Below, piece by piece: positions 6,379 to 54,769 of a stretch of DNA of 64,000 bases (position 1 is its first letter; each line of letters begins with the position of its first letter). The stretch spans positions 1-64,000 of the forward strand of contig JACRQE010000002.1 of assembly GCA_016222815.1 (NCBI GenBank), given 5' to 3'. The translations under genes were made by a program, and so were the position numbers. The stretch is from Candidatus Uhrbacteria bacterium. GTDB taxonomy: Bacteria > Patescibacteriota > Patescibacteriia > 2-12-FULL-60-25. A model generated the notes under the pieces. It did not search any database, had not been told where the DNA came from, and worked only from the letters and a program-made list of their open reading frames with translations.

Positions 6379-8499
6379 TCACTCGTTGCATTTAGGTTCG
6401 ATGGGCGGACAGTAGCTTTTACCACACTTGCTCATCAATGCAGTGCCCGGATTGCTGGGGGCGTTCTTATCGGTCAAAGTGAAATCGCAAGTGATGCCCT
6501 TATCGCCGGAGATGGCGGCCTTCAGCTCCTGCTCGCTCCACATCGAAGGAGGCTGGACCAGAGACGTCAGGTTGGGATGGACGCCGCCACCGGGTTCGAT
6601 CCATGAACCGCAATAGAACGCTTCCTGCATATCCGCCTCATCCAATACTCCGCCATCGGCATATGCTTTGAAGCGCGACGTCCCGCTGTTGCCGCAATCG
6701 TTTTTGGTGATAATGGTGATGTCGTCAAGCGTGGCACACGAAGTGATGCCTCCGATAGCGCAGGAGACGAGGGATCTCGACGTATCTTTATATTTCAACC
6801 CCAAAACGATACCCCGCAAACCTCCGCTGTTGTTGCACGCGGTCTTGAGCTTCTGGAGATCGCCCTCGGAACCGCTCCACATGAATGCGACGCCACCGGC
6901 ATCGCCCTCGGTTGAACCGGCGAGCTGGGCTTTAAGGAATGCCGGAGTGTTAGCCTGGGCTTTCTTGAATCCGAATTTCTGTCCTGCGGACGGCTGGATC
7001 CAGTTGCACACGGCCATCAACTCGATGTTCTTGGGGACGCGGCCGTCGGCGAAATTAATGTAACCGGCGATTGAGGCTTTGACGCAGGCGTTACCCCTTG
7101 TCTTTTCCTCGCACTCTTCGATTTCCGAGTCCTTGGTGCAGGGCATGCAAAGCTTGCCTTTCTCCTCGCACTTCTGCCCCTGGCAACGCTGGCCCGTAAA
7201 ACCTTCGATGTAATATTCCTTGCCGCAGACCGTGTCTTCGGCCAAAGTCTCGAGTTTTGATTCGGAATAAAGCAACTGTCCGGGCGGGTCGCCGGAGTCG
7301 CCGAACTTCAAGGGCTTGCCGGGGTCGACAGGTTCGTAATCTTTGCACCAGTTGAATTCCGCGAAACGGAGAGTATTTATCATCTTGATGCCAAGCTTGT
7401 CGTACCTGGCCGTGGCCGGATTCAAGGTGTTAAGCAGGACCACGGCGGTCAGGGTCAGAATGAGCCCGATGATCGAGTTAAGGATGGTGTTTTTGGCGCT
7501 GGCAATGGTACCGATAGACGAACCCAGGATGTACTTGAATCCTCCGAAGACGAACATGATAGCCGATACGACCAAGGCTGCCGTGACGGCGAAGCGCAAC
7601 ATCAATTCGACCCAACCTCGGATGCCCAAGACTTGGGCTTGTTGCATGATGGGCGATGACAGCTGGATGACGGGTTCGGGGGCGAGGCAATAGCCCTGGG
7701 CTGTGGGGCAAGCTGAATCGACGCCGGTGAACACACCTTTGGCAGTGGCGCATTCCCCTGGCTTGAAGCACAGGACATTGACGTCGGATTCAAGCTGGGG
7801 CGCTCCTTCGGACTCGGCCTGATAGCGGCCGATACCCTGGGTCACGTCCACGCGGCCTTTTTTCTTTTGGCAATCGGCCTCACATGCAGAGAAAGTCGAA
7901 CGGCCGCGCTTATTCTCGTCCGGAGGCACAATCGCCTTATTCACGATGCAATAGCAGTCGCCGTAATAAATCGGGGGCTGTTTGTAACAGGTCTCGACGT
8001 CGATTTTGCCTTGGCCGTCGGTCGCGGGTTTGAAATTTTCGATGCAGCAGCCCTGTGGACCCTTATCACAAGCCAATTCCTTAGCCGCCTGGAGAGTGGC
8101 TTCGGGGAGATATTTGGCGCAGAAGGCAGTCGTATAAGCGACTATAGCCACGCCGATGACAGAAGCTTTGTCGGGAAAGATGGAGAGCTGGGTAGCGGCG
8201 GCGATGGCCGTGCACTTGCCACAGGCTAAAGTCAGGGCGTCGAGTTTTTTGTCAGGGCTCAGCTGCGAATAGCACAATGCGGCACAAACTTCCGGATAAG
8301 CCTTGGCGTATTGGACGGTTTGCTCCTGGCCGTTAACCGGAACCGTAGTGTCCTTGAGGCAATCGTCCAGGCCATCAGCCTTGGCGGCCAAAGGCAAAAA
8401 TAAACCGAGCACCACCCAACCAAGAAGACCGACCGCCAACGGCCGGGAAAATTTCTTGGACAGGTTCAAATGCATAATCGCTTGGCCGGGCAGGATCAT
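6379..8499 (-). CDS. Cys-rich secreted membrane protein with a VirB2/T4SS-pilin-like segment
   Basis: A 706-residue protein with an N-terminal signal (SRPLAVGLLGWVVLGLFLPLAAKA). A long Cys-rich region (CAALCYSQL, CGKCTA, CCIENF, CYCIVN) precedes two membrane helices around residues 300-365 (AALVVSAIMFVFGGFKYILGSS, NTILNSIIGLILTLTAVVLLNTLNP). This paired-helix segment looks like the TrbC/VirB2-type T4SS-pilin family that is frequent in CPR genomes. A second Cys-rich region follows and ends PPIEPKCNE. The start codon overlaps the stop of the upstream DsbA-like gene (ATGA), which supports the 8499 start and suggests its many disulfides depend on that neighbour. A role in a surface channel or appendage is inference; no other secretion genes are adjacent. 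Confidence 0.7.
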   Translation of the reverse strand: MILPGQAIMHLNLSKKFSRPLAVGLLGWVVLGLFLPLAAKADGLDDCLKDTTVPVNGQEQTVQYAKAYPEVCAALCYSQLSPDKKLDALTLACGKCTAIAAATQLSIFPDKASVIGVAIVAYTTAFCAKYLPEATLQAAKELACDKGPQGCCIENFKPATDGQGKIDVETCYKQPPIYYGDCYCIVNKAIVPPDENKRGRSTFSACEADCQKKKGRVDVTQGIGRYQAESEGAPQLESDVNVLCFKPGECATAKGVFTGVDSACPTAQGYCLAPEPVIQLSSPIMQQAQVLGIRGWVELMLRFAVTAALVVSAIMFVFGGFKYILGSSIGTIASAKNTILNSIIGLILTLTAVVLLNTLNPATARYDKLGIKMINTLRFAEFNWCKDYEPVDPGKPLKFGDSGDPPGQLLYSESKLETLAEDTVCGKEYYIEGFTGQRCQGQKCEEKGKLCMPCTKDSEIEECEEKTRGNACVKASIAGYINFADGRVPKNIELMAVCNWIQPSAGQKFGFKKAQANTPAFLKAQLAGSTEGDAGGVAFMWSGSEGDLQKLKTACNNSGGLRGIVLGLKYKDTSRSLVSCAIGGITSCATLDDITIITKNDCGNSGTSRFKAYADGGVLDEADMQEAFYCGSWIEPGGGVHPNLTSLVQPPSMWSEQELKAAISGDKGITCDFTLTDKNAPSNPGTALMSKCGKSYCPPIEPKCNE

Positions 8500-9257
8500 T
8501 TGGCATCCGCCTTCTTGCGCGCTTCATCAGCCACGACTTCCAGGAAATCCTTGTCCATCGCGCCTTCGAAAACTGTGCCGTTGAAGTAGAAGGCAGGAGT
8601 ACCGCTAATCCGCAATCCTTCACCCAATAAAACCGAAGAATTAATTTCACTTAGGTACTTACCGGTACGATAGCACTCGGCGAATTTGTTCGTGTCAACG
8701 CCCAGTGCTTTAACCTCTTGAACATAGCCTTCCAAACTCCTCTCCGAACCTTGCGTCGCAAACAGACGTTCTTGAAACGACCAGTATTTCGCGGGATCCA
8801 CATCGAAGACACAGCGTGCCGCCAATGCCGAGGCCTGCGCGTATGGGTAGAGCTCGGTAATCGGGTAATCGCGGATAATCAAATAGGCATCTTCGGCATG
8901 ACGCGCCATGTACTCCGCTATGACAGGCGCTACCTTTTTGGTATTTGGACATTCGTAATCCACGAACTCGACGATGTGGAGCTTGGCATCCGGATTACCC
9001 AGGGTGGGATTCGTCCCTTCTTCGATCCGCGCCAGCTCTTTGTCGGACAGACGCTTGTCCAAAGCTTTAGAAACGCTAATGCGCAACTGCTCGAAGCGCG
9101 TATCAGCCAAAGGCTGCATCTTGCCCATCTTGATGAGCACCATGAAGTAGACGGTCTGGCCGATCAGGAAGAGGATGGATGCCAGGATGAGACCGCCGAG
9201 GATGGCGCCGGCAAGCTTAAGGGGGCTCTTATACCAAGGTTTGAGGGTAGCGGACAT
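8496..9257 (-). CDS. Membrane-anchored DsbA/BdbD-like thioredoxin-fold protein, monothiol site
   Basis: A 253-residue protein with one TM helix (about 14-42) and an extracytoplasmic thioredoxin_4-type domain: NPDAKLHIVEFVDYECPNTKKVAP, an inserted helical region, and the cis-Pro loop ISGTPAFYFNG. The active site reads C-P-N-T: the nucleophilic Cys103 is present but the resolving Cys is Thr. An ordinary dithiol oxidase would have CPxC, so this may act as an isomerase or chaperone, or with an external thiol. The start at 9257 is chosen over 9287 because it gives a clean N-in anchor. It is directly coupled to a Cys-rich secreted protein, its likely client. Confidence 0.8.
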   Translation of the reverse strand: MSATLKPWYKSPLKLAGAILGGLILASILFLIGQTVYFMVLIKMGKMQPLADTRFEQLRISVSKALDKRLSDKELARIEEGTNPTLGNPDAKLHIVEFVDYECPNTKKVAPVIAEYMARHAEDAYLIIRDYPITELYPYAQASALAARCVFDVDPAKYWSFQERLFATQGSERSLEGYVQEVKALGVDTNKFAECYRTGKYLSEINSSVLLGEGLRISGTPAFYFNGTVFEGAMDKDFLEVVADEARKKADAK

Positions 9258-48224: not shown

Positions 48225-49202
48225 TTACCGCGCTAAAAGCGGCTCCCACCACCCTCGATTCTCCACGTACCATTGGACAAATTTTTCGAGACCCTCTTCG
48301 AATTTCACTTGCGGTTCCCAGCCGAGTTCGGCTTTGGCTTTGGATGAGTCGATGGCGTAGCGGCGGTCGTGGCCTTTGCGGTCTTCGACGAATTTGATGA
48401 GCGAGTGCGGCTTGTGCAGGATGTCGAGGATGCGTTTGGCGATTTCGATATTCGGGATTTCCGCATTGCCGCCGAGGCAATATGTCTCGCCGACTTTCCC
48501 CTTTTCCAGGATAGCCTCGATGCCGCGGCAGTGGTCGTCGACGTGGATCCAGTCGCGGATGTTGAGGCCGTCGCCGTAGATTGGGAGCGGCAGGTCGCGC
48601 AACGCGTTCACGGTCATGAGCGGGAAAAGTTTTTCCGGGAACATGTACGGGCCGTAGTTGTTGGAGCAATTGGAGATGGTGAAGGGCAAATCATGCGTGT
48701 GGCAATAAGCGCGGACCAGCTGTTCGGCCGCGACTTTGGAGGCGGAATACGGGCTCCGCGCATCGTGGCAGGATTTTTCGTTGAACTTGTGCGGGTCATC
48801 GAGTTCGAGGCTACCGAAGACCTCGTCGGTCGAGATGTGGTGGAAGCGCTTGATTTGGCCGGCGCGGCGCTTGGTCTCTTCGAGGAGATTGTAGGTGCCG
48901 ATTACGTTGGTCTCGAGGAAGACTTTTCCGCCATCGATGGAACGGTCTACATGCGACTCGGCCGCGAAGTGGACAACGACATCAACACCTTCCATGGCGC
49001 GAACGACGTCCGCAGGATTGCGGATGTCACCGTGGACGAAGGTGTAGCGCGGATCTTTCTCGATATCCCGCAGGTTCTCGAGGTTGCCGGCATAGGTCAG
49101 CGCATCCAGATTCACGATGGAATCCGTCGGATGGTTGGCCAGCCAATAATGGATGAAATTGGAGCCAATGAATCCGGCGCCGCCGGTGACGAGGAGTTTC
49201 AT
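48225..49202 (-). CDS. rmlB: dTDP-glucose 4,6-dehydratase
   Basis: A 325-residue extended SDR: the NAD motif is VTGGAGFIGSNFIHYW, followed by DALTYAGNLENL, HFAAESHVDRSI, the catalytic Thr-Asp-Glu in ISTDEVFG and YSASKVAAE with Tyr/Lys. SNCSNNYGPYMFPEKLFPLM and GDGLNIRDWIHVDDHCRGIEAIL complete the RmlB signature. It converts dTDP-glucose to dTDP-4-keto-6-deoxyglucose. It is 37 bases upstream of the RmlD-like/RmlA fusion in the same operon; rmlC is not in the window. Confidence 0.95.
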   Translation of the reverse strand: MKLLVTGGAGFIGSNFIHYWLANHPTDSIVNLDALTYAGNLENLRDIEKDPRYTFVHGDIRNPADVVRAMEGVDVVVHFAAESHVDRSIDGGKVFLETNVIGTYNLLEETKRRAGQIKRFHHISTDEVFGSLELDDPHKFNEKSCHDARSPYSASKVAAEQLVRAYCHTHDLPFTISNCSNNYGPYMFPEKLFPLMTVNALRDLPLPIYGDGLNIRDWIHVDDHCRGIEAILEKGKVGETYCLGGNAEIPNIEIAKRILDILHKPHSLIKFVEDRKGHDRRYAIDSSKAKAELGWEPQVKFEEGLEKFVQWYVENRGWWEPLLAR

Positions 49203-49658: not shown

Positions 49659-50027
49659 TCACGGAAACGGACGGAATGACCGGACGTCCCGGGATTCTGC
49701 AGCTGTCAACACTTTCTTATCGGTTAATACATCCACCAGTCTTCCGACCTGCCGGTCTTCTTTGCGCATCATGGACACCATATCGCCTTTCAGATCACCG
49801 AGCTTATCGTCCAAGTAATTCTTAGTGACCATAGTCGCCTCGATTCTTCCAAGTCTAGATTCAAGGCTGGTGGTCTTGGAATCAAGGCTGTTTACTCTTG
49901 CATCGAGACCACCGATTCTTGAATTAACTTTTTCAAAACCATCATCCATCTTGTCGGATAGTTCTTGCACAGTCTCCGCGAGGAGACTAACGGCCTCTAA
50001 AATCTCATGTTTGGCTTCGTCCTCCAT
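49659..50027 (-). CDS. Coiled-coil protein, left copy of a duplicated pair
   Basis: A 122-residue helical protein: MEDEAKHEILEAVSLLAETVQELSDKMDDGFEKVNSRI, a heptad region GLDARVNSLDSKTTSLESRLGRIEATMVTKNYLDDKLGDLKGDMVSMM, then RKEDRQVGRLVDVLTDKKVLTAAESRDVRSFRPFP. It is closely similar to the protein at 54413-54769, including the ends and the upstream DNA, with divergence in the middle. Function unknown; it looks like a trimeric or dimeric coiled-coil. The pair brackets the TIGR-like locus. Confidence 0.75.
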   Translation of the reverse strand: MEDEAKHEILEAVSLLAETVQELSDKMDDGFEKVNSRIGGLDARVNSLDSKTTSLESRLGRIEATMVTKNYLDDKLGDLKGDMVSMMRKEDRQVGRLVDVLTDKKVLTAAESRDVRSFRPFP

Positions 50028-50089: not shown

Positions 50090-51094
50090 TTACTTTTCCA
50101 CACTTAAAGAGGAGATGCTTCCCTGCCAGCTTTCCTTATCGGTCTCACTACGTACCACCAGGAGTTCGTCAGCCGTGAGCTCGATGCCTTTGAGCAGCGG
50201 CGATGCGTTGAGACGTTCGAGAATTTTTTCGTCTGTCATTTGGATTGGATCTTCGCTTCCGACTGGAGAATCGAGCTGGATGACCACAGGTTTTTCGCGG
50301 AGCTTCACGTGTGAATGTGTTTTGATGACGCGGACGGCCAATGCCACACCTTCGAGGAGTTCTTCGACCGGCATGCCGGGATGGAGGTTGTATGCGGCGT
50401 TGCGCGTGGCCGACCAGGCGCGTGGCAGTTCTCCGACATAAATGCGGTTGCCGGAGTGGACGCGGTCCTTCGGACCAACGCCATCGGCTTTGGAAATACC
50501 CACGGACTCAACCAATCGGTTGCGGGCATAATCGGCGGCGGCCGGAATTATAGAATCGCCAATCGGTTCCAAACCATGGTCATCGGTATCGTAGAAAGCG
50601 GTTACAAAATTTGCGCCCGCGAATTCAGGACGCGACTTGAGATCGGTCGCTAGATTGGAAAAATATTCAGTCAGCGCCGCTTCATCGTTCTTGAAAGCCG
50701 CGCATCCAGCATGTCCGTCGCCGCTGCATTTGTGCGGAAAAAGATAGATATTGATTTCCTTGCCGGACTTCCGGGCTTCTTCGATTTGCGGTCCGTAGAG
50801 CTTCAGGAGTGTCTCGGCCGTGACACGACCGCCGGGCGAGGAAAAACTTTCGACGGCGCCGAGAGGTTCGCCGGTCGCTTCGTTCTGGAACGTGTTGCGT
50901 TCGTCCATGCAGCCGACGACCACACCAAAGGCTTTGGCCCTCCTCGCTTCACGAGCTTCACGCTGGGATGCGAACTCGGCGACAGCTTTCGTACGGTCCT
51001 GTTCGAGAAGTTGGAGTTCGCGCTCCTTTTGGGCTTCGCGCTCGGCATGGCTGACCGGCAATTCTTTGAGATCACTAAGTGTTTCGAATGACAT
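50090..51094 (-). CDS. Carbonic-anhydrase-like protein (beta class-like motifs), unknown role
   Basis: A 334-residue protein. After an N-terminal charged helix (about 15-55) come GVVVGCMDERNTF, ESFSSPGGRVTAETL and IYLFPHKCSGDGHAGC. This order (C-x-D-x-R, then a GGR loop, then H-x-C with a further H and C) resembles the zinc site of beta carbonic anhydrases (CxDSR...HxxC). The rest (FYDTDDHGLEPIGDSIIPAAADYARNRLVESVG, LPRAWSATRNAAYNLHPGMPVEELLEGVALAVRVI) is not typical, so this may be a distinct metal-binding family. The start at 51094 is preferred over 51106. Confidence 0.6.
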   Translation of the reverse strand: MSFETLSDLKELPVSHAEREAQKERELQLLEQDRTKAVAEFASQREAREARRAKAFGVVVGCMDERNTFQNEATGEPLGAVESFSSPGGRVTAETLLKLYGPQIEEARKSGKEINIYLFPHKCSGDGHAGCAAFKNDEAALTEYFSNLATDLKSRPEFAGANFVTAFYDTDDHGLEPIGDSIIPAAADYARNRLVESVGISKADGVGPKDRVHSGNRIYVGELPRAWSATRNAAYNLHPGMPVEELLEGVALAVRVIKTHSHVKLREKPVVIQLDSPVGSEDPIQMTDEKILERLNASPLLKGIELTADELLVVRSETDKESWQGSISSLSVEK

Positions 51095-51197
51095 AGTTGA
51101 AAGCAATTATACACGGCTACCATCTAAAACCCAGACAGAACCACTATTTTACCAAGAATTGTTGCAATCTTAGCCAAAATATTGGGACCTGACACCC

Positions 51198-51226
51198 TTG
51201 ACGGAAGTCACTTTTTCTGTTTAACT
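51198..51226 (+). promoter_or_regulatory. Candidate promoter reading into array 1
   Basis: TTGACG (51198-51203), 17-base spacer, TTAACT (51221-51226), 20 bases before the first array hairpin. Good -35, weak -10. It is the only plausible promoter in the 51095-51245 gap and points along the tas strand. Confidence 0.35.
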
Positions 51227-51245
51227 AATCAATCACCAAACTTAG

Positions 51246-52028
51246 CACCCTCTTCGGAGATTCCGAAAACTCAGACTTTCCGAAGAGGGTGCGACAGGAT
51301 TTGCGTTGAAATAACGAACGCGGGAATGCACCCTCACAATCTCGGCGGACGACTACCGAGGTGCGAGAAATCACGTGAAGAAGCCTGTCCGCCTTCAATC
51401 TTGCGGGACGAATGTAGGTCTGTTTCTAGTGAAGCGAAGATCGGCTTGTCCCGCTCGGGTGCAGCGGCAACGCTGCACCCGCCTTCTTCGGAAATTCTTG
51501 ATGAAACGGAATTTGCGAAGAGGGTGCGACGAGGACGATGTCGAACGACGCCTGGACGGCTGCACCCTCAATATTTTGGCCCGTCTGACGGACCTTCAAA
51601 CTCGCGGGACGACAAGGATGTTGTTTCAAACGAAACGACGATGCCCGTGTCCCGCCCGGGTGCAACGGTAACGCTGCACCCGCCCTCTTCGGAGATTCTG
51701 ACGAATCGGAATCTGCGAAGAGGGTGCGATGGTTCAACTGTCGAAAGATGATCCCCAGCCTGCACCCTCACAATCTAGGCGGACGATCAAGACAGTGCGA
51801 GTAATCACGTGACACGAGATGTCCGCCTTCGATCTCGCGGGACGAACGTTGGAGTGTATCCAAAGAAATGAAAGAAGCTTTGTCCCGCTCGGGTGCATCG
51901 GCAACGATGCACCCACCTTCTTCGGAGAATCTGGGTCCCCGCCTGCGCGAGGACGACGAAATAGGCGGATTTTCCGAAGAGGGTGCGAGTACGGCTGCGT
52001 CGAAAGACGACCGTTGGTGTGCACCCTC
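51246..52028 (+). repeat. TIGR-like guide array 1 (nine units, 18 nine-base spacers)
   Basis: The higher-order order is: conserved hairpin CCCTCTTCGG...CGAAGAGGG; unit in stem GAGGGTGC/GCACCCTC (type 1); unit in GGCGGAC/GTCCGCC (type 2); unit in GCGGGAC/GTCCCGC (type 3); hairpin GGGTGCA...TGCACCC. Each unit is spacer A (9), hairpin core, spacer B (9). Type 1: 51295-51326 caggatttg/acgcgggaa; 51530-51560 cgaggacga/ctggacggc; 51730-51760 tggttcaac/tccccagcc; 51989-52019 gtacggctg/ccgttggtg. Type 2: 51353-51385 ctaccgagg/gaagaagcc; 51787-51819 tcaagacag/gacacgaga. Type 3: 51412-51446 atgtaggtc/agatcggct; 51613-51647 caaggatgt/cgatgcccg; 51846-51880 acgttggag/aagaagctt. Core lengths are 13-14, 15 and 17 for types 1-3. 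The second block lacks a type 2 unit, and the fourth has only type 1. Confidence 0.9.
51915..51983. repeat. Array hairpin enlarged by a CCCCGCCTGCGCGAGG-type repeat
   Basis: The conserved CTTCTTCGGAGAATC...GGATTTTCCGAAGAGG hairpin carries an extra GGGTCCCCGCCTGCGCGAGG palindrome, with GACGACGAAAT after it, in its loop (about 51932-51962). The other copies of this hairpin have only about 10 loop bases. It appears to be an insertion of an interspersed repeat into the array. Confidence 0.7.
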
Positions 52029-52151
52029 ACCTTCTCAATGAATGTCCTGCCTCGGCGGGGCGAAACGGGGACGTCAAACGTCCTCACGTTCCTCACAACG
52101 TCCCGAAAGGGACACCATCGCGTAAAACGCGACAAACAAGGACAAGTCGGC
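52029..52151 (+). promoter_or_regulatory. Structured leader between array 1 and tas
   Basis: Three small hairpins: GGACGT-CAA-ACGTCC (52069-52083), GTCCC-GAAA-GGGAC (52100-52113) and TCGCG-TAAAA-CGCGA (52118-52132). An AAGGA Shine-Dalgarno-like sequence (about 52137-52141) precedes the tas start. No promoter is obvious, so array 1 and tas may share a transcript. Confidence 0.45.
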
Positions 52152-53804
52152 ATGAAAGACACCAGGTTTGTCGGAATCCGCCACCGCGTCAAGAAGACTG
52201 CCGAAGGCGAAGCCCGCCCGACGCAAGTCGCCATCCTCGCTGATTCCAAGGTCAAGTCCATTGACCTGGAGGACGAGCGAGCCGAGCTCGATTTCGTGCT
52301 CGGCATTTTCCCGGTCAAGTTCCGAGTAGTGGAACCCGAGGAAGACCTCACGCCGTTCGCCAAGCATCACGTCAAGTGGCGCAAGGCCAAGGCTGGCGAG
52401 GACCTCGAAGCTCTGCCCGAAAGCCACCGCACGCTCATCGAAAAGAAACTGCATGTGGCTGACAAGGTTCCGGCGGCCTACGAAGGACTGAAGGATGGCG
52501 ACACGGTCGCTATGTCCCTCGGCGGCTCCGGAGACTATCTGGCCTTCGCGCTCTCGCGTCAGGCGGACAAAGTCGGTGCCCAAGTCTTCCGCATCCCGCC
52601 GTTCCACCTCAAGGATCAGCGGCCGACCGCGGACAAGGACAGTGACGCCCAGCTCATGGCCGAGCTCGTGCGCGACAAGCGCCCGCTCTTCCGCCCGGTC
52701 ACGCCCCGCGACCGCGACCAGCTCCTTCTGCGCATCCGTTACCGCGGGTTCGAGGAAGCCATGAAGGCGCGCATCGCGACCGAACAGCGGCTGTACCAGC
52801 GGCTCATCGGCGAGATCTTCACCCAGCCCGACGGGCTCTATCCCGAAGGCGATTTGGAAGAAGCGTTCAAGGCGGCCAAGGCCAACGACAAGATCCTCAA
52901 GTCCCAAACGGCCGAAGAAGCTGCGCGCGAACGTGACATGCTCGCGGCGCTCCAAAAGCTCGAAGCCTTCAAGGTCATGGGGCCCGTCGAAGGCGTGGGA
53001 CCGCGCATCGCCGGACGGCTCACGGCCGCGGCGCTCGTCAATCTCGGACGCTTCGTGGTCAAGCCAGACGAAGCTGAGATTGAGAAACTACGCGTTGAAG
53101 CCACGGAATGGGCCAAGGTCGCGGAATGCGAGACGACCGGCATCGAGCGCAAGCCCAACGAAGCGCGGCGCGAATACTACTTCCGCGTGCGCCAAGTCTT
53201 GCTCGAACGCGGCGAAACCGACCGCTCCGAATCGCTCCAGGAAGCCATCAACTGCCTGGATCGCATCCGGAAGATCAAGCGCAAGGCAGAAGCCAAGAGC
53301 TGCAACAAGTTCAAGGCGTACTGCGGCGTCCACGTGTTCCAGGGCGGCAAGCACGGCGAACAGGCCGAGGAAGCGCAGTTCCCGCGGCGGCGCGGCGACC
53401 AGGTGGCCAACTGGTCGGGCACGGCGCGGCAGGCGTTCTTCCTGGTCGTGGACCAGTTCAACAAGCGGCCGGACAGCAAGTGGGGCAAGTACCTGCGCCA
53501 GATGAAGGCCAACCAGCGCAAACTGCATCCCGAACCCATCAAGGTCCCGTCGCTGAACAAGGACGGCACGCCCAAGCTCAACAAGAAGTCGGGCGAGCCC
53601 ACCCTGGTCAGCCGCTACACGGACGGTCACATCCACAAGCGCGCAGTCTGGCGCACGGCCACGAGATTCGCGGAATGGTTGTTCCGCGAGCTCGTCAAGT
53701 TTGAGACCGGCGCCACGACCGCACCTCCGGCCAAACTGCCCGAGCACAAAGGCGACACTCTACCATCGCCGCAGATGGCCGAGCCGGCCGCCTTGTCAGC
53801 CTAG
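52152..53804 (+). CDS. Tas-like / IS110-like Nop-type protein embedded in the guide array
   Basis: A 550-residue cytoplasmic protein. The N-terminal part (about 20-190) follows the IS110 DEDD/RuvC-like layout: VAILADSK (Asp31), GSGDYLAFALSRQADKVGAQVFRIPPFHLK, ADKDSDAQLMAELV (161-172, matching K-T-D-x-x-D-A), KRPLFRPV, then a helical EQRLYQRLIGEIF. The Glu normally after the second strand is not evident. A coiled-coil section (about 230-275) leads to GPVEGVGPRIAGRLTAAALVNLGRF (277-301), the IS110/Nop-type helix-hairpin-helix. The C-terminal region (KFKAYCGVHVFQGGKHG...RRGDQVANWSGTARQAFFLV) parallels the IS110 serine domain but has Gly where the catalytic Ser-Gly lies. The charged C-terminus is Pro-rich at the end. 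Array units begin 5 bases after its stop. I infer an RNA-guided binding protein, possibly nuclease-dead. Confidence 0.75.
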   Translation: MKDTRFVGIRHRVKKTAEGEARPTQVAILADSKVKSIDLEDERAELDFVLGIFPVKFRVVEPEEDLTPFAKHHVKWRKAKAGEDLEALPESHRTLIEKKLHVADKVPAAYEGLKDGDTVAMSLGGSGDYLAFALSRQADKVGAQVFRIPPFHLKDQRPTADKDSDAQLMAELVRDKRPLFRPVTPRDRDQLLLRIRYRGFEEAMKARIATEQRLYQRLIGEIFTQPDGLYPEGDLEEAFKAAKANDKILKSQTAEEAARERDMLAALQKLEAFKVMGPVEGVGPRIAGRLTAAALVNLGRFVVKPDEAEIEKLRVEATEWAKVAECETTGIERKPNEARREYYFRVRQVLLERGETDRSESLQEAINCLDRIRKIKRKAEAKSCNKFKAYCGVHVFQGGKHGEQAEEAQFPRRRGDQVANWSGTARQAFFLVVDQFNKRPDSKWGKYLRQMKANQRKLHPEPIKVPSLNKDGTPKLNKKSGEPTLVSRYTDGHIHKRAVWRTATRFAEWLFRELVKFETGATTAPPAKLPEHKGDTLPSPQMAEPAALSA

Positions 53805-53808
53805 TCTT

Positions 53809-54364
53809 GGGGACGTCTGTCTTCTTGGCCTGAAAGAGGTCGATCAAGAACCTGTCCCCCTCCCCCACACCAATGTGAATTGGTGTGGGGGCCTTCTTCG
53901 AAGATTCTGACGACTCGGAATCTGCGAAGAGGGTGCGTCCACTGCGTTGTCGGATGACGACGGTTGTCGTGCACCCTCACTATCTTGGCGGACGACGAGC
54001 ATGTAGCGGTAAATCGCGATGTTCGACTTGTCCGCCACCAATCTCGCGGGACGTACAAGGCGGTGTTCAACAGAACGATCACGTCTTTGTCCCGCACGGG
54101 TGCACCACACGGTGCACCCGCCCTCTTTGGAGGTTCTGATGACTCGGAATCTGCGAAGAGGGTGCGATCAACTCGGTGTAGAGATACGATCGTAGCGTTG
54201 CACCCTCACTATCTTGGCGGACGAATGGCGGGTTGCGAGAAATTGCGAACGGAAGGATGTCCGCCACCAATCTCGCGGGACGAAAGAGTGCGTGCTTCGA
54301 TAGGAACGTTGGTCGAAATGTCCCGCTCCCCCACACCAATGCGAATTGGTGTGGGGGAATTTTT
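53809..54364 (+). repeat. TIGR-like guide array 2 (seven units, 14 nine-base spacers)
   Basis: It starts 5 bases after the tas stop with a variant type 3 unit in stem GGGGAC/GTCCCC: 53817-53852, spacers ctgtcttct/tcaagaacc, 18-base core. A CCCCCACACCAAT...ATTGGTGTGGGGG hairpin follows, then two full blocks. Type 1: 53939-53969 ccactgcgt/cggttgtcg; 54168-54198 tcaactcgg/tcgtagcgt. Type 2: 53996-54028 cgagcatgt/tgttcgact; 54225-54257 atggcgggt/acggaagga. Type 3: 54055-54087 acaaggcgg/tcacgtctt; 54284-54318 aagagtgcg/tggtcgaaa. The GGGTGCA...TGCACCC hairpin separates the blocks. No spacer is repeated within or between arrays, whereas the stems are nearly invariant. Confidence 0.9.
54327..54364 (+). 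terminator. Terminal hairpin of array 2
   Basis: Stem TCCCCCACACCAAT / ATTGGTGTGGGGGA followed by ATTTTTAT. An almost identical hairpin lies at 53861-53892 within the array but lacks the T run. The position suits the end of a plus-strand transcript. Confidence 0.7.
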
Positions 54365-54412: not shown

Positions 54413-54769
54413 TCACGGAAATGGACGGTACGACCGGACATCCTTGGATTCTGCCATGGTCAAGACTTTTTTATCGGTTAATACCTCCACCAATCTTCCA
54501 ACCTGCCGGTCTTCTTTGCGCAGCATTGAAACCATATCGCCTTTCAAGTCGCCAAGTTTATCGTCCAGATAGCTTTTGGTGACCATGGTAGCTTTAATCA
54601 TAGTCACATCTGACTTGAGGCTGCTCACATCTGATTTAAGACTGCTCACATCTGACTTGAGGCTGCTCACGTCTGACTTGACGCCACCTAAGTCGTTCGA
54701 CAGATCCTGGACCTGATCGGCCAGCAGGCTGATGGCTTCTAAAATCTCATGTTTGGCTTCGTCCTCCAT
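54413..54769 (-). CDS. Coiled-coil protein, right copy, with 7-residue tandem repeats
   Basis: A 118-residue paralogue of 49659-50027. The N-terminus MEDEAKHEILEAISLLADQVQDLSNDLGG and the C-terminus ATMVTKSYLDDKLGDLKGDMVSMLRKEDRQVGRLVEVLTDKKVLTMAESKDVRSYRPFP match closely. The middle is replaced by SSLKSDV repeated about four times, encoded by 21-base tandem DNA repeats (about 54603-54680). Each repeat is one coiled-coil heptad, so copy-number change would lengthen the rod without frameshift. Function unknown. Confidence 0.75.
   Translation of the reverse strand: MEDEAKHEILEAISLLADQVQDLSNDLGGVKSDVSSLKSDVSSLKSDVSSLKSDVTMIKATMVTKSYLDDKLGDLKGDMVSMLRKEDRQVGRLVEVLTDKKVLTMAESKDVRSYRPFP
54603..54680. 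repeat. 21-base in-frame tandem repeat (heptad coding)
   Basis: About four copies of TCTGACTTGAGGCTGCTCACA-like units (small variations such as GATTTAAGA), encoding successive SSLKSDV heptads in the coiled-coil gene. Confidence 0.85.

What the first reader, a model, noticed from the sequence alone, without database searches (positions are those of the whole stretch)
51246..54364. A TIGR-Tas-like RNA-guided locus: two dual-spacer arrays around a Nop/IS110-like protein
Sequence: sixteen units, each made of two variable 9-mers separated by a conserved-shape hairpin, lie inside three near-invariant GC stems. No 9-mer repeats. The protein between the arrays has an IS110-type order (Asp motif, D-x-D-x-x-A-like motif, coiled coil, helix-hairpin-helix). 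Knowledge: TIGR-Tas systems, reported in 2025 in phages and parasitic bacteria, pair tandem interspaced guide arrays (about 36-nt RNAs with two spacers) with Nop-domain Tas proteins akin to IS110 and box C/D proteins. Inference: this is such a system in a CPR genome.
Basis: partly seen in the sequence, partly recalled or inferred. Interest (0 to 1): 0.97.

Follow-up and report, generated by a model that had tools for sequence, protein, structure and literature searches.

The report
CPR stem-loop TIGR-Tas guide locus
A small parasitic-type (CPR) bacterium carries a recently imported cassette of paired 9-letter RNA guides around one RNA-binding protein, a nuclease-dead member of the already described TIGR-Tas family, and the guides have changed completely relative to a sister locus while the scaffold has not.

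Summary
There are 15 intact units, plus one collapsed unit, and each reads stem-GA-N9-T-hairpin-GA-N9-T-stem'. They use three fixed stems (A, B, C) and flank a 550-aa gene. All 15 lie here and nowhere else in the 1.3-Mb genome.

The protein is a Tas protein. NCBIfam TIGR_Tas_endo scores 99 bits against a cut-off of 100. A clade profile finds the solved TasR, 9MTY, at 9.6e-26. Foldseek ranks 9MTY first; all 17 significant matches are Tas or IS110-type chains.

Its RuvC domain has lost catalytic residues (R10 where the first Asp belongs). It matches the CPR clade 'inactive RuvC TasR with stem arrays' already reported by Faure et al. 2025 (PMC12045711). So it is a new member of a known kind, not the 36-nt dual-repeat type.

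New here:
- The rule GA-N9-T, twice, holds across independent clade loci (53 units at 9 nt, at most 5 at any other length).
- A sister locus in another genus (79% aa) shares stem arms (98.8%) but its spacers are near chance (29% vs 25%).
- The locus is an insertion, with empty sites in two same-genus genomes.

The target is unknown; there are no self-targets.

The parts
51182..51246 (+). probable leader/promoter region before the first array (TTGACG at about 51197, AT-rich stretch after it)
   Evidence: read by eye; a similar TTGACA...TTAAAT stands before the L001 array; the consensus scan did not call a promoter
51246..52028 (+). upstream array: units A1 B1 C1 A2 (B2 collapsed) C2 A3 B3 C3 A4
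   Evidence: exact stems genome-wide only in this locus
51285..51335 (+). example A unit: GAGGGTGC-GA-N9-C-hairpin-GA-N9-T-GCACCCTC
51344..51393 (+). example B unit: GGCGGAC stem
51403..51454 (+). example C unit: GCGGGAC stem, hairpin GTTTC-TAGT-GAAGC
   Evidence: folds at -24.7 kcal/mol, z -4.0
51456..51481 (+). linker hairpin D without spacers; further copies at 51657, 51890, 54097
   Evidence: differing but still paired arms in L001
51683..51724 (+). linker hairpin E; 5' arms start at 51248, 51482, 51683, 51916, 53892, 54121. Its 3' arm shares GAGGG with the 5' arm of the following A unit
   Evidence: -30.2 kcal/mol, z -7.0
52029..52151 (+). 5' leader of the gene with small hairpins
52152..53804 (+). 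tas gene, 550-aa TasR-like protein with degenerate RuvC domain, Nop/IS110-type RNA-binding region and a large insertion (about residues 303-380)
53862..53891 (+). hairpin CCCCCACACCAAT-GTGA-ATTGGTGTGGGGG after the gene, no T run
53892..54326 (+). downstream array: E, A5 B5 C5, D, E, A6 B6 C6
54327..54363 (+). rho-independent terminator closing the locus
   Evidence: 14-bp stem then T run
49659..50027 (-). coiled-coil gene, copy 1: left edge of the inserted segment
   Evidence: 72% aa identity to copy 2; single copy at this place in G001
50090..51106 (-). 338-aa gene inside the inserted segment, no family match, no real homologue in same-genus genomes
54413..54769 (-). coiled-coil gene, copy 2: right edge of the inserted segment, next to IF2

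Best explanation
This is a stem-loop-array TIGR-Tas system of the nuclease-dead TasR clade of CPR bacteria. Most likely array, gene and second array are transcribed as one unit ending at the terminator at 54327. Each unit folds into a stem with an inner hairpin that presents two box C/D pairs (C = (C)GA, D = U(G)) and two 9-nt spacers. A Tas dimer binds one unit through its Nop-type domain and uses the two spacers to pair with opposite strands of an 18-bp DNA target. Because the RuvC site is lost, it holds or bends the DNA without cutting, which probably silences or destabilises other mobile elements. Shown here: membership, unit grammar, loss of RuvC residues, total spacer turnover against a sister locus, insertion as a cassette, and no self-target. 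Inferred from the studied relatives: transcription, processing, two-strand DNA binding. Guessed: the biological target.
For: Family: TIGR_Tas_endo 3.7e-28 for this protein, and all 18 clade members match. Clade profile against TasR 9MTY 9.6e-26, then IS621 8.5e-6. Model pLDDT 85; 9MTY first, all 17 significant matches are Tas or IS110-type chains. The paper reports 9MTY as TasR and describes a CPR clade with inactive RuvC, large Nop insertions and stem arrays. Grammar: GA/T boxes at spacer 9 give 53 units in 25 other clade loci; other lengths give at most 5, other box words at most 8. RuvC: position 10 is never D/E in the 17 members that reach it, and TasR's first Asp of the D-x-x-D pair aligns to K162. 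Spacers near chance while stem arms are 98.8% identical between loci. No tandem 18-bp match in the host genome beyond re-paired controls. No shared partner or adaptation gene in 18 loci.
Against: No expression data. The protein falls 1 bit below the NCBIfam cut-off. No target was found, so action on DNA rests on relatives with active nucleases. E hairpins compete with the 5' arm of every A unit, which this model does not explain. Close relatives of this Tas were not found in phage, plasmid or IMG/VR collections, so a tie to mobile elements rests on the insertion alone.
Confidence: 0.82

Rival explanations
1. Same protein-RNA machine, but the guides act on RNA (snoRNA-like binding or modification), the idea raised by Faure et al. 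for this clade as an intermediate to box C/D RNPs.
For: Inactive RuvC and box C/D-like boxes resemble Nop5 RNPs.
Against: No spacer is complementary to the host 23S or 5S rRNA (0.36 expected by chance, so a weak test; 16S not located). Fully variable spacers do not fit fixed RNA sites. Box C/D Nop5 is far behind TasR in the fold search (E 1.2). No methyltransferase or other partner gene is shared.
Confidence: 0.07
2. A bridge-RNA-guided transposition system of the IS110 type, the units being donor/target guides.
For: Protein similarity to IS110 recombinases.
Against: The catalytic Asp residues are lost, TasR matches better than IS621, and IS110 elements carry one bridge RNA, not 15 units. PF01548 finds nothing in this genome at its threshold.
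Confidence: 0.03
3. A decayed, non-functional TIGR locus.
For: One collapsed unit (B2), an insertion in one E hairpin, some variant boxes (GT, GC).
Against: Intact 550-aa frame, 79% identical to the sister with conserved motifs, 15 regular units with 9-nt spacers and unchanged stems.
Confidence: 0.06

Closest known systems
TasR with inactive RuvC and stem arrays in CPR (Faure et al. 2025, PMC12045711; inactive-RuvC example Ca. Buchananbacteria RIFCSPHIGHO2_02_FULL_56_16)
   Same: Host group, degenerate RuvC, large Nop insertion, stem-loop units with two spacers and C/D boxes, arrays on either side of the gene
   Different: Here stems are not variable: three fixed stems recur in A-B-C order, separated by two spacer-less hairpins (D, E). 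The published example could not be aligned here
Stem-loop TasA array from the Peromyscus gut contig (same paper)
   Same: Dual spacers with C and D motifs inside palindromic stems; shown there to be processed into single units
   Different: TasA has no RuvC domain; stems vary from unit to unit
Dual-repeat TIGR-TasR of Thermoproteota (PDB 9MTY)
   Same: Fold, 9-nt spacers, box D 'UG' matches the U-G here, box C 'CCA' parallels (C)GA
   Different: Active nuclease, 36-nt tigRNAs with short repeats, no long stems
IS110/IS621 bridge-RNA recombinases (8WT6)
   Same: RuvC-like plus RNA-binding domain order, stem-loop guides
   Different: Catalytic, single bridge RNA, mobile-element ends

Membership tests
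TIGR-Tas | Tas protein with Nop/IS110-type RNA-binding domain | tested here: met
   NF052498 99 bits (cut-off 100), profile vs 9MTY 9.6e-26, Foldseek first hit 9MTY
TIGR-Tas | Array of units with two 8-12-nt spacers bounded by box C and box D, next to the gene | tested here: met
   15 units, 9-nt spacers, GA and T boxes; same rule in other clade loci
TIGR-Tas | Array transcribed and processed into single-unit RNAs bound by Tas | not testable with these tools
   needs small-RNA sequencing
TIGR-Tas | Spacers direct binding to opposite DNA strands in tandem | not testable with these tools
   no target found in the host genome; binding needs an assay
TIGR-Tas, dual-repeat type | Short alternating edge and loop repeats of 8-12 nt giving 36-nt tigRNAs | tested here: not met
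   7-8 bp stems and 10-14-nt hairpins, unit length 48-52 nt
CPR inactive-TasR stem-array clade | RuvC domain lacking catalytic residues | tested here: met
   R10 for the first Asp, no D/E there in any of 17 members; K162 opposite a TasR Asp. Roles of the positions partly from general knowledge of RuvC/IS110
CPR inactive-TasR stem-array clade | Large insertion in the Nop domain | tested here: met
   about 80 residues (303-380), helical, present in 6 of 18 members
CPR inactive-TasR stem-array clade | Groups with the published example in a tree | not tested
   published sequence not at hand
IS110 transposons | Catalytic DEDD recombinase with a single bridge RNA | tested here: not met

The most novel reading that the evidence does not exclude
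TIGR stem arrays rewrite themselves in place: A-B-C modules are copied or recombined through the invariant stems, and the spacers then diverge faster than the scaffold, so new guides arise without any acquisition machinery.
Probability: 0.25. Interest if true: 0.75.

Novelty: new member of a known kind. Interest (0 to 1): 0.47.

Why it matters
How TIGR arrays gain spacers and what they target are stated open questions in the founding paper. This locus and its sister give a pair with the same scaffold, different spacers, different chromosomal sites and a clean empty site. They show that the guides turn over while stems and boxes stay put. A duplicated module in the sister hints at change in place.

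Tried and rejected
Tandem 18-bp self-targets in either order, plus same-strand order: nothing beyond re-paired spacers and the sister's spacers. rRNA complementarity: none in 23S/5S; 16S was not found with exact motifs. Rfam on the locus: no real hit. Relatives in IMG/VR, phages and plasmids: none. A partner gene conserved beside tas: none; the shared families are tas itself, reading frames antisense to it, and housekeeping genes such as translational GTPases. Consensus promoter scan: none called. Scanning viral contigs for 18-mer targets was judged uninformative, since by my rough estimate of the collection's size chance matches would be of order one per pattern.

Full report
OBSERVATION. With exact stem arms the window holds 15 dual-spacer units, in the order A1 B1 C1 A2 C2 A3 B3 C3 A4, then the gene, then A5 B5 C5 A6 B6 C6. 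These are the only ones in all 1,298,452 bases of the genome on either strand. Each reads stem, GA, 9 nt, T, hairpin, GA, 9 nt, T, stem'. Over the window and sister units together, GA is kept in 23 of 31 units at each C position (GT is the usual variant), and T in 26 and 30 of 31 at the two D positions. Stem A is GAGGGTGC, B is GGCGGAC and C is GCGGGAC. A sixteenth unit, B2, has collapsed (read). Between modules stand two hairpins without spacers, D and E. The inner hairpins co-vary: 111 of 124 cells paired, null mean 81, maximum 95; within stem class 111 against a mean of 104 and a maximum of 110.

PROTEIN. The 550-aa product matches NCBIfam TIGR_Tas_endo at 3.7e-28, 99 bits with a cut-off of 100. 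Seventeen relatives were found in genome contigs; the titles that name a group are CPR/Patescibacteria, and some say only 'bacterium'. All 18 clade members match the same model. The clade profile finds PDB 9MTY at 9.6e-26 and IS621 at 8.5e-6. The paper deposits 9MTY as the TasR structure. The AlphaFold2 model has mean pLDDT 85.3. In the Foldseek search against the PDB, all 17 matches with E below 0.001 are TasR, TasH, IS621 or ISCro4 chains, TasR first (E 1e-8, TM by target 0.61-0.63), while box C/D Nop5 appears only at E 1.2.

RUVC IS DEGENERATE. Where RuvC/IS110 proteins carry the first Asp (GI-D, general knowledge), this clade has GI-R and never D or E in the 17 members that cover the site. 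The first TasR Asp of its D-x-x-D pair aligns to K162, while D165 is kept. D11A abolished TasR cleavage, so loss of the activity is the likely reading here, though not assayed. An insertion at about 303-380 is shared by the five longest relatives.

GRAMMAR IN OTHER LOCI. Scanning L002-L017 with the rule taken from this window gave 34 units on the gene strand, 2 on the other and none in shuffles. Over 25 loci (L002-L017 plus L120-L128) spacer length 9 gave 53 units, other lengths at most 5, and other box words at most 8. Some of the L120-L128 loci may not be oriented to the gene, and one of them repeats a genome seen before; this may explain the 15 opposite-strand units there. Boxes U-G and C-G-A parallel the UG and CCA boxes of TasR.

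SISTER LOCUS AND TURNOVER. L001 (G016, same family, other genus) has the same A/B/C/D/E scaffold around a 79% identical Tas, with 16 units. Same-class stem arms are 98.8% identical between loci; spacers are 29% identical against 25% by chance. Within L001, units B and C of one module (8072-8180) are near copies of those at 8541-8650, with 6 changes in 36 spacer positions and few outside them, while the A units beside them have unrelated spacers (counted by eye). This suggests copying or recombination through the stems. One pair is thin evidence.

INSERTION. In two same-genus genomes the sugar-nucleotide gene at 48225-49202 is followed directly by IF2: G001 has one coiled-coil gene between them, G003 has none. 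The window instead has two copies of the coiled-coil gene (72% aa) enclosing the 338-aa gene and the whole TIGR locus. In G016 the locus sits before RNase J. Tas is 79-80% identical between the two genomes, against 69% for RNase J, 65% for TrpS and 48% for the peptide-binding protein. Tas is absent from the three same-genus genomes. Horizontal transfer is the simplest reading. In the phylum sample 13 of 380 genomes carry a relative.

TARGET. No unit has a tandem 18-bp match in the host genome better than controls, and no spacer is complementary to 23S or 5S rRNA. No shared partner gene was seen. The most likely role is binding of foreign DNA without cutting. That step is inferred.

WHAT IS KNOWN. 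Faure et al. (PMC12045711) describe stem-loop arrays and a CPR clade of TasR with inactive RuvC, large Nop insertions and stem arrays. This locus fits it. The fixed three-stem modules and the D/E linkers, where E competes with the 5' arm of every A unit, are particular to this pair of loci as far as seen here.

Noticed in passing
51248-51292 and the five other E/A junctions; also six in L001: The 3' arm of hairpin E overlaps the 5' arm of the next A stem (GAGGG) in all 12 A units seen, so the two folds exclude each other; E is the stronger. Possible processing or switching element.
   Followed up: partly
51931-51972: One E hairpin carries an insert with a REP-like palindrome (TCCCCGCCTGCGCGAGGACGACG); the core occurs once in this genome.
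   Followed up: partly
50090-51106: 338-aa gene imported with the locus, no Pfam match; its GCMDERN and SSPGGRV stretches recall beta-carbonic-anhydrase-like proteins (impression from memory).
   Followed up: partly
40038, 40693, 56923: Tandem CGTACCG heptamers between genes; 14 such tandem places in the genome.
   Followed up: partly
L001:2926-4488: A caspase-like gene (SFAIIGGHG...SSCSTG motifs, read by eye) lies upstream of the sister locus.
   Followed up: no
own genome (G000): 16S rRNA was not found with eight exact universal motifs although 23S and 5S are present (L067); it may be missing, interrupted or divergent.
   Followed up: no
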